Source of the DNA: Candidatus Altimarinota bacterium
GTDB taxonomy: Bacteria; Patescibacteriota; Gracilibacteria; UBA4473
Assembly: GCA_018608565.1 (NCBI GenBank)
Contig: JABAZT010000028.1
Coordinates: forward strand, 1-64,000
DNA: 64,000 nt
Direction of reading: 5' to 3'
A model generated the notes under the pieces. The model saw nothing but the letters and a program-made list of their open reading frames with translations. It did not search any database and was not told where the DNA came from. A program made the position numbers and the translations under genes. Below, one piece after another: positions 58,952 through 60,071 of this stretch; within the stretch, counting starts at the first letter, position 1, and every line of letters begins with the position of its first letter.

Positions 58952-58980
58952 TTGACAGAAACTATACGAGGCTCTATAAA
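58952..58980 (+). promoter_or_regulatory. Near-consensus promoter TTGACA-N17-TATAAA upstream of the metA leader
   Basis: ttgaca 58952-58957, 17-nt spacer, tataaa 58975-58980. Confidence 0.75.
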
Positions 58981-58989
58981 TGACTGTAG

Positions 58990-59049
58990 ATGAAAAACAT
59001 AAAAGTAATGATGCCAATGATGATAAACCTTCTACCGAAGGCGAGTTAA
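58990..59049 (+). CDS. Candidate Met-rich leader peptide MKNIKVMMPMMINLLPKAS
   Basis: ATG AAA AAC ATA AAA GTA ATG ATG CCA ATG ATG ATA AAC CTT CTA CCG AAG GCG AGT TAA; between promoter and terminator, upstream of metA. Confidence 0.65.
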   Translation: MKNIKVMMPMMINLLPKAS

Positions 59050-59099
59050 TTGTTTGTATCTACTACGAATTCTTACTCCGCCTTTCTGGCGGTTTTTTT
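59028..59099 (+). promoter_or_regulatory. Candidate transcription attenuator of metA (1:2 hairpin, 2:3 antiterminator, 3:4 terminator)
   Basis: CCTTC(59028-59032)/GAAGG(59037-59041); GAAGGCG(59037-59043)/CGCCTTT(59079-59085); CCGCC(59078-59082)/GGCGG(59088-59092) plus T7. Confidence 0.65.
59078..59099 (+). terminator. Intrinsic terminator in the metA leader
   Basis: CCGCC-tttct-GGCGG-TTTTTTT, 27 nt before the metA start codon. Confidence 0.8.
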
Positions 59100-59126
59100 A
59101 TTTCTAAATTTATTATCTCTCTCCCT

Positions 59127-60071
59127 ATGCCACTGATTATCCCCTCCTCAAACAAACTCCCTATCTATAACTCGCTTGTCTCTGAACGAGTCCATGTAAT
59201 AGACAAATCTCGAGCCGAACATCAGGATATCCGTCCACTGAGGATTGGACTCCTCAATCTCATGCCGGCTGCCGTGAGAGAAAAAACTGAGATTCAATTC
59301 TTTCGACTCCTCGGGAACACCCCACTACAGATTGAACCAGTATTGATACGATTTGATGATTTTATTCCGAATACGGGTAAGGAGCGTATGGAAGTTTTTT
59401 ATGAAAAATTTGTAGAAGTGAAATCAAAAGGACTTGATGGGCTGATTGTGACAGGTGCAAATCTAGAGACACAAGAAAATGGATTGCTTTTAGATTTTGA
59501 TCAAATTCATTTTGTAGATGAATGGAAAAAGATTCTCGACTGGGCGAAAGAATATGTCACTTCCACTATCTATTCGTGTCTTGGTTCTCATTTTGCGTTA
59601 GAGCATTTTTATAAGATTGAACGAGAACATTCTGAACAAAAAATATTTGGAGTTTTCACTCATACGCTCGATCACTCCAATCATCCAGAAATTCTTCGTG
59701 GGATGAATGACCAAGTCCCTGTTCCACACTCTCGATGGGGAAATATACCAATAAAATCTATCAACCATCCTGAGTTACAAATTGTTGCCCAAAATCCTGA
59801 CTGCGGTTGGCATATGATCCTCGGTCGAAATGGTCGCGAAATCTATCTCCAAGGTCATCCTGAATATGATAGAGAGGATCTAGTCGGAGAATATCTCCGA
59901 GACAAAGAAAATGGTCAGGAAATGCCGCATAATTATTTTCCAAATAATGATGAAACTCAGACTCCCATCTGCAACTGGAAGGCTGATAGCTCCGTTTTCT
60001 ATCGAAATTGGGTCAATCATGTCTATCAGACAACCGGATACGATACGACAAAGCCGTTTATGGAGTCGTAG
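59127..60071 (+). CDS. metA: Homoserine O-acyltransferase, MetA/HTS family
   Basis: MPLIIPSSNKLPIYNSL, RIGLLNLMPAAVREKTEIQFFRLLGNTPLQIEPVLI, GLIVTGANLE, SCLGSHFAL, FGVFTHTL, PHSR, QGHPEYD. Confidence 0.9.
   Translation: MPLIIPSSNKLPIYNSLVSERVHVIDKSRAEHQDIRPLRIGLLNLMPAAVREKTEIQFFRLLGNTPLQIEPVLIRFDDFIPNTGKERMEVFYEKFVEVKSKGLDGLIVTGANLETQENGLLLDFDQIHFVDEWKKILDWAKEYVTSTIYSCLGSHFALEHFYKIEREHSEQKIFGVFTHTLDHSNHPEILRGMNDQVPVPHSRWGNIPIKSINHPELQIVAQNPDCGWHMILGRNGREIYLQGHPEYDREDLVGEYLRDKENGQEMPHNYFPNNDETQTPICNWKADSSVFYRNWVNHVYQTTGYDTTKPFMES

What the first reader, a model, noticed from the sequence alone, without database searches (positions are those of the whole stretch)
58952..59129. Methionine leader-peptide attenuator upstream of metA
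All parts of a trp/his-style attenuator are present in order: promoter TTGACA-N17-TATAAA; leader ORF 58990-59049 (MKNIKVMMPMMINLLPKAS, with ATG ATG CCA ATG ATG at 59008-59022); segment 1 CCTTC pairing with segment 2 GAAGG; segment 2 GAAGGCG alternatively pairing with segment 3 CGCCTTT; and terminator 3:4 CCGCC-tttct-GGCGG-T7; then metA at 59127. A ribosome stalled on the Met codons would cover segment 1 and favour 2:3 (read-through), whereas one reaching the stop codon would cover segment 2 and allow 3:4 (termination). Attenuation by leader peptides is established for trp, his and branched-chain operons; methionine genes are more usually controlled by SAM riboswitches, T-boxes or MetJ/MetR. 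The regulatory behaviour is inference from sequence.
Basis: partly seen in the sequence, partly recalled or inferred. Interest (0 to 1): 0.87.

Follow-up and report, generated by a model that had tools for sequence, protein, structure and literature searches.

The report
Methionine leader-peptide switch before metA
In front of a methionine-making gene, this tiny-genome bacterium carries a short coding stretch rich in methionine codons followed by an RNA "stop" hairpin, so that ribosomes starved of methionine should keep the gene switched on; the same device sits before methionine genes in dozens of related genomes, although leader-peptide switches had hardly been reported for methionine.

Summary
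Confirmed and extended. At 58952-59099 there is a strong promoter, a 19-codon ORF beginning about 9 nt after the -10 box (MKNIKVMMPMMINLLPKAS), and a terminator whose 5' arm can instead pair with the end of the ORF. In silico a ribosome on the Met codons favours the antiterminator (2:3), a ribosome at the stop codon leaves the terminator (3:4), and untranslated RNA gives 1:2 + 3:4. The layout is conserved: 14 of 17 metA genes in the class have it at the head of the gene or operon, and a profile built without the window's family finds the window at E=5e-8. A class-wide profile search gave 63 of 361 genomes at E<=1e-5. Most leaders examined are Met-rich (23.7% Met; 393 in-frame versus 4 out-of-frame ATGs), have a terminator, and are predicted to be leaderless. 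Genes behind them: metA, an O-succinylhomoserine sulfhydrylase, homocysteine S-methyltransferases, a methionyl-tRNA synthetase, and SAM hydrolases (some recognised only by predicted fold). In the same genome metK carries a SAM-I riboswitch instead. The mechanism is classical ribosome-mediated attenuation; methionine specificity, leaderless starts and wide use in small-genome Patescibacteria appear new. The only precedent found was a weaker proposal, S. lividans metL. No expression data exist.

The parts
58952..58980 (+). sigma-70-type promoter TTGACA-N17-TATAAA
   Evidence: sequence; 58 of 71 leaders have a similarly strong promoter (score 9.5 or more; mean 10.1 vs 7.9 for shuffles), most with the -10 box 6-9 nt before the leader start codon
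58990..59049 (+). Met-rich leader peptide ORF MKNIKVMMPMMINLLPKAS-stop, probably translated from a leaderless start
   Evidence: sequence; conserved Met-rich leaders; ATGs in frame 393 vs 4
59008..59022 (+). regulatory codons ATG ATG CCA ATG ATG
   Evidence: sequence; equivalent MM-X-MM(M) run in relatives with variable X
59028..59032 (+). segment 1 CCTTC, pairs with segment 2 when no ribosome is present
   Evidence: fold of 58987-59100
59036..59046 (+). segment 2 CGAAGGCGAGT, antiterminator 5' arm
   Evidence: duplex with segment 3 -12.3 kcal/mol vs -5.5 for shuffles, p=0.01; fold
59075..59086 (+). segment 3 ACTCCGCCTTTC; the terminator 5' arm CCGCC is 59078-59082
59078..59099 (+). intrinsic terminator CCGCC-TTTCT-GGCGG-T7 (3:4)
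   Evidence: fold
59127..60071 (+). metA, homoserine O-acyltransferase (PF04204)
   Evidence: start supported by homologue lengths
57937..58887 (-). divergent SPFH/Band 7 gene; no + strand gene upstream, so the + strand terminator is not the end of an upstream operon

Best explanation
It is a methionine-specific, ribosome-mediated transcription attenuator (trp/his type) controlling metA. RNA polymerase starts within a few bases of the leader ATG, so a ribosome can load at once on the leaderless ORF. With ample Met-tRNA the ribosome reaches the stop codon, covers segment 2, and segments 3:4 form the terminator. When elongator Met-tRNA is short the ribosome waits on ATG ATG CCA ATG ATG, segment 2 is free and pairs with segment 3, and transcription continues into metA. 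RNA never loaded with a ribosome folds as 1:2 + 3:4 and terminates. Shown: sequence parts, conservation, co-varying alternative pairings, in-frame Met run, methionine-related downstream genes. Inferred: start site, translation, stalling, termination and read-through.
For: All parts present and in order. Window folds: stalled gives 2:3 (-16.3 kcal/mol before arm 4 is made), ribosome at stop gives 3:4, no ribosome gives 1:2 + 3:4. Conserved before metA in 13 of 17 metA genes of the class and heading a metA gene pair in a 14th; tandem copies before metA in G019 and, in another class, G398. Leave-family-out profile hits the window at E=5.1e-8. Leader tail and terminator arm co-vary: mean duplex -16.7 for true partners vs -10.5 for swapped partners, 0 of 20,000 permutations as good. 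Over 70 leaders, arm 3 is sequestered 0.68 with a stalled ribosome, 0.11 with one at the stop, 0.50 with segment 2 shuffled. In-frame ATGs 393, out of frame 4; spacer residue varies. Downstream genes: O-succinylhomoserine sulfhydrylase, homocysteine S-methyltransferases, methionyl-tRNA synthetase, SAM hydroxide adenosyltransferases.
Against: No transcript or reporter data. Met shortage also lowers fMet-tRNA and hence initiation, and an untranslated leader is predicted to terminate, so the dynamic range could be poor. At equilibrium many leaders favour the terminator even with segment 2 free (only 25 of 73 fall below 0.5), so antitermination would have to be kinetic. A few leaders show no antiterminator in the model (G048, G219, G208). 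metA in G112, G200 and G201 has no leader close upstream.
Confidence: 0.88

Rival explanations
1. The terminator is controlled by direct binding of a metabolite (SAM or methionine) to the leader RNA, i.e. an undescribed riboswitch, and the ORF is incidental.
For: Met genes are often under riboswitches; the same genome has a SAM-I riboswitch.
Against: No Rfam match. Across leaders the conserved elements are an in-frame Met run, a stop codon about 30 nt after it, and a swappable 2:3/3:4 pairing with diverse sequence, not a conserved aptamer fold (RNAalifold found no consensus pair on the 14-leader alignment). The SAM-I riboswitch is on metK, elsewhere.
Confidence: 0.04
2. metA really starts at ATG 58980 (363 aa) and the hairpin lies inside its coding sequence by chance.
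For: The frame is open from 58980, and the sequence database lists a 363-aa protein for this gene.
Against: Closest homologues are 312-317 aa; the extension would cross a conserved terminator; relatives have a different ORF, the Met-rich one, at this place.
Confidence: 0.02
3. The leader is a constitutively terminated short transcript (a small RNA or a functional Met-rich peptide gene, for example a copper-binding peptide) with metA merely downstream.
For: Promoter, ORF and terminator would also suit a small independent gene; Met-rich peptides can bind Cu(I) (general knowledge).
Against: It is repeatedly placed before methionine genes in different genomic settings, and its tail co-varies with the terminator arm. 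No other metA promoter was sought.
Confidence: 0.05
4. Translation-linked control, but of another kind: nascent-peptide stalling or a general sensor of slow translation rather than Met-tRNA charging.
For: Arg-Gly after the Met run recurs in one family and could be a stall sequence.
Against: The Arg-Gly codons are segment 2 (CGAGGG) and are replaced by unrelated residues where the terminator arm differs. The Met run is the shared peptide feature.
Confidence: 0.06

Closest known systems
Classical leader-peptide attenuators (trp, his, leu, ilv, thr, phe operons of Proteobacteria; leuS/trpS/hisS leaders in Actinobacteria and Firmicutes)
   Same: Short ORF with a run of the regulatory codon, alternative 2:3 and 3:4 hairpins, intrinsic terminator before a matching biosynthetic or synthetase gene.
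   Different: Regulatory codon is Met, which is also the initiator; the ORF is probably leaderless; found here across Patescibacteria. A premature-terminator survey (PMC2965389) knew leader-peptide systems only in Proteobacteria, Actinobacteria and, newly, Firmicutes, and an Actinobacteria survey found none for methionine operons (PMC1262725).
Streptomyces lividans metL before metNIQ (PMC8079986)
   Same: Proposed methionine leader peptide, leaderless start, methionine gene downstream.
   Different: MSTTSDRTPATEATTTPGARCMCRRMCAF has two internal Met and no Met run; its authors found no typical terminator; no comparative support was seen in the passages read.
SAM-I riboswitch (RF00162) and Met T-box (RF00230)
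   Same: Control methionine genes through a premature terminator; the T-box also senses uncharged tRNA.
   Different: Direct RNA sensing without translation of an ORF; no match at this site; in this genome SAM-I lies upstream of metK and no T-box was found.

Membership tests
ribosome-mediated leader-peptide attenuator | short ORF with a cluster of codons for the end-product amino acid | tested here: met
   in relatives
ribosome-mediated leader-peptide attenuator | intrinsic terminator between leader ORF and structural gene | tested here: met
   relatives
ribosome-mediated leader-peptide attenuator | antiterminator using the terminator 5' arm, positioned so that a ribosome at the stop codon masks it and one on the regulatory codons does not | tested here: met
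   in a few relatives weak or absent
ribosome-mediated leader-peptide attenuator | 1:2 protector hairpin giving termination without translation | tested here: inconclusive
   present in the window; not tested systematically in relatives
ribosome-mediated leader-peptide attenuator | downstream genes make, charge or spare the amino acid counted | tested here: met
   metA, O-succinylhomoserine sulfhydrylase, homocysteine methyltransferase, MetRS, SAM hydrolase; some downstream genes remain of unknown function
ribosome-mediated leader-peptide attenuator | read-through rises on starvation and depends on leader translation | not testable with these tools
   needs expression experiments
SAM-I riboswitch | match to RF00162 at this site | tested here: not met
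   the genome's one match is upstream of metK
T-box | match to RF00230 | tested here: not met

The most novel reading that the evidence does not exclude
Patescibacteria use a widespread, leaderless, methionine-specific attenuator as a main control of methionine supply (synthesis, charging, and recovery of Met from SAM). It separates elongator from initiator use of Met-tRNA: the start codon sits at or next to +1 so that initiation is favoured, and the following Met run reads elongator Met-tRNA charging.
Probability: 0.6. Interest if true: 0.85.

Novelty: new variant of a known kind. Interest (0 to 1): 0.78.

Why it matters
Methionine is a hard case for leader-peptide attenuation, because starving for it also starves translation initiation; surveys found riboswitches, T-boxes and repressors instead. 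A family found in dozens of small-genome bacteria, some with tandem copies, says translation can count methionine. It gives a way to assign methionine roles to unknown genes behind such leaders (for example the divergent SAM-hydrolase fold family), and makes testable in E. coli how elongator and initiator Met-tRNA shortage are told apart.

Tried and rejected
Single-protein search of named genomes gave no metA relative; a profile search gave mostly Bacillota and others, and the one Patescibacteria locus, L026, showed no leader by eye or by profile. The exact pattern ATGATGCARATGATG also hits coding genes; those were set aside. RNAalifold gave no consensus pair on the MAFFT alignment, because arms differ in register, so sequence-only profiles were used. 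Equilibrium folding alone is a poor test and was replaced by co-transcriptional states. My automatic ORF or terminator finder failed on G005b, G206, G214, G222, G223, G267 and G302b; all but G005b (never in the set) were left out. Literature searches for Met leader peptides gave only the S. lividans proposal. Naming the organism: the class is probably Gracilibacteria, since one member reads TGA as an amino acid (G112); this is an inference.

Full report
Observation. A + strand terminator lies in a divergent intergenic region between an SPFH gene on the - strand and metA on the + strand, so it is not the end of an upstream + strand operon. metA is a PF04204 homoserine O-acyltransferase. A 363-aa open frame reaches back to 58980, but close homologues are 312-317 aa, which places the start at 59127.

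Conservation before metA. Sixty relatives and then the class (361 genomes) were searched for metA. metA is rare: 18 matches, one of them weak (G268). Directly upstream of metA in G007, G029, G037, G005, G186, G183, G184, G185, G019, G043, G047 and G010 lies a short ORF with a Met cluster, then a stop codon and a hairpin with a T-run. Examples: MLNQLMQMAMMMLGMKISADLVRVPR, MLFRGFTAMMQMMMQFRSELGSF, MQKNIMAMGMMMNEETRRSK, MVLLSFSFGMMMNMQMQRPGGVIL. In G052 the leader precedes a homocysteine S-methyltransferase gene followed by metA. G112, G200 and G201 lack it close upstream. In G019 two such units stand in tandem. In G398, of another class, two tandem units precede metA (MIRTSAAVRLMMSMMMDMVWHGRR and MLSPGSSSCRFMMMPMMHLRI).

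Chance. A sequence-only profile of 11 leaders from other families found one place in the 64 kb window, 59000-59102 +, E=5.1e-8. ATGs after the start codon in 70 leader ORFs are in frame 393 times and out of frame 4 times, and the residue between the Met blocks varies (Q, S, A, H, P and others), which fits reading as codons rather than as a fixed DNA site.

Alternative structures. In the window, RNA free from 59034 on and ending before arm 4 folds as 2:3 (-16.3 kcal/mol); free only from 59061 it folds as the terminator; whole and untranslated it folds as 1:2 + 3:4. Across leaders, the ORF tail and the terminator 5' arm fit each other: true partners average -16.7 kcal/mol, swapped partners -10.5, 0 of 20,000 permutations as good in 12 lineage representatives. 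With arm 4 not yet made, arm 3 is sequestered 0.68 on average for a stalled ribosome, 0.11 for one at the stop codon, 0.50 when segment 2 is shuffled (paired test p=2e-8). At full equilibrium the terminator wins in many leaders, so the switch would be kinetic, as accepted for trp-type attenuators (general knowledge). Ribosome footprints were assumed, not measured.

Promoters and leaderless starts. Of 71 leaders, 58 have a promoter score of 9.5 or more (mean over all 10.1, shuffled 7.9), and in most of these the -10 box ends 6-9 nt before the leader start codon, so the transcript would begin within about two bases of the ATG. In the window the distance is 9 nt. This predicts translation of a leaderless mRNA; leaderless leader peptides are known in Streptomyces (PMC8079986).

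Regulon. The pattern ATGATGCARATGATG and a profile of 14 leaders were run over the class; the profile gave 63 genomes at E<=1e-5, 14 of them training genomes. Fifty-six hits were examined, most of them at E<=1e-5, and the large majority are Met-rich ORFs with terminators; G005b, G267, G214, G222, G223 and G355 were not convincing or not resolved by my script. Behind the leaders: an O-succinylhomoserine sulfhydrylase-like gene (G025); homocysteine S-methyltransferases (PF02574; 12 genomes in one similarity cluster, plus G271 as second gene); methionyl-tRNA synthetase (G012); SAM hydroxide adenosyltransferases (PF01887; G023, G328, G336); methyltransferases; and unknown proteins. A 16-member family without Pfam match in the members scanned was modelled from 16 sequences (pLDDT 87.7) and matches SAM hydroxide adenosyltransferase, chlorinase and fluorinase structures (2zbv E=4e-9, SAM hydrolase 22uy E=1e-8). 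Such enzymes split SAM into adenosine and methionine (established for characterised members; activity not shown here). So the set is methionine synthesis, charging and recovery, plus genes of unknown role. Outside the class, five further hits in the phylum sample also carry Met-rich leaders, one before a protein similar by eye to this family with a weak SAM_HAT_C match.

Division of labour. The window's genome has a SAM-I riboswitch upstream of metK, no T-box, no PF02574 homocysteine methyltransferase and only a partial Cys/Met PLP-enzyme match; how its metA product is used is unclear.

Comparison and novelty. It works like, and by every sequence-level feature tested belongs with, ribosome-mediated attenuators. 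Precedent for methionine in the open library is one suggestion, S. lividans metL, without a Met run or typical terminator. A survey of Actinobacteria found no conserved RNA regulatory structure before methionine operons, and Naville and Gautheret (2010) knew leader-peptide systems only in Proteobacteria, Actinobacteria and, newly, Firmicutes. Subscription papers were not searchable. I rate it a new variant of a known kind.

Open problem. Methionine shortage should also cut initiation on the leader, and untranslated leader RNA is predicted to terminate. Leaderless initiation, the number of internal Met codons and tandem copies may be answers; none is tested.

Noticed in passing
L251 (G000 contig C17:28983-29072, - strand): SAM-I riboswitch (47.9 bits, gathering 44.4) about 70 nt upstream of an apparent metK (SAM synthetase, identified by sequence motif only) in the same genome.
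   Followed up: partly
L161, L169, L180, L185, L189, L195-L197, L200, L206, L208, L210, L212, L213, L226: Family of about 300-370 aa proteins directly behind Met leaders, without Pfam match in members scanned, with the SAM hydroxide adenosyltransferase fold by prediction.
   Followed up: yes
L163, L166, L171, L175-L178 and others in family f5: Small protein of roughly 65-80 aa beginning MVN-LP behind the Met leader, with its own terminator, then hisS in genus g131 and neighbours; function unknown.
   Followed up: partly
L140 (G202) and L141 (G203): Two tandem Met attenuators; in G202 they precede a methyltransferase, an isopropylmalate/homocitrate synthase-like enzyme and an aminotransferase, possibly a methionine chain-elongation or secondary pathway.
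   Followed up: no
window 54746-56416: N-acetylglutaminylglutamine synthetase-like protein (TIGR03103, 465 bits, below the 569 cut-off) next to an M20 peptidase: a possible osmolyte locus, unexpected in so small a genome.
   Followed up: no
window 60119-61678: BT1-family (folate/biopterin-type) transporter on the - strand beside metA.
   Followed up: no
L203 (G005 contig C112:4695-4813): Strong profile hit (E=7.7e-8) for which my script found no Met-rich ORF; unresolved.
   Followed up: no
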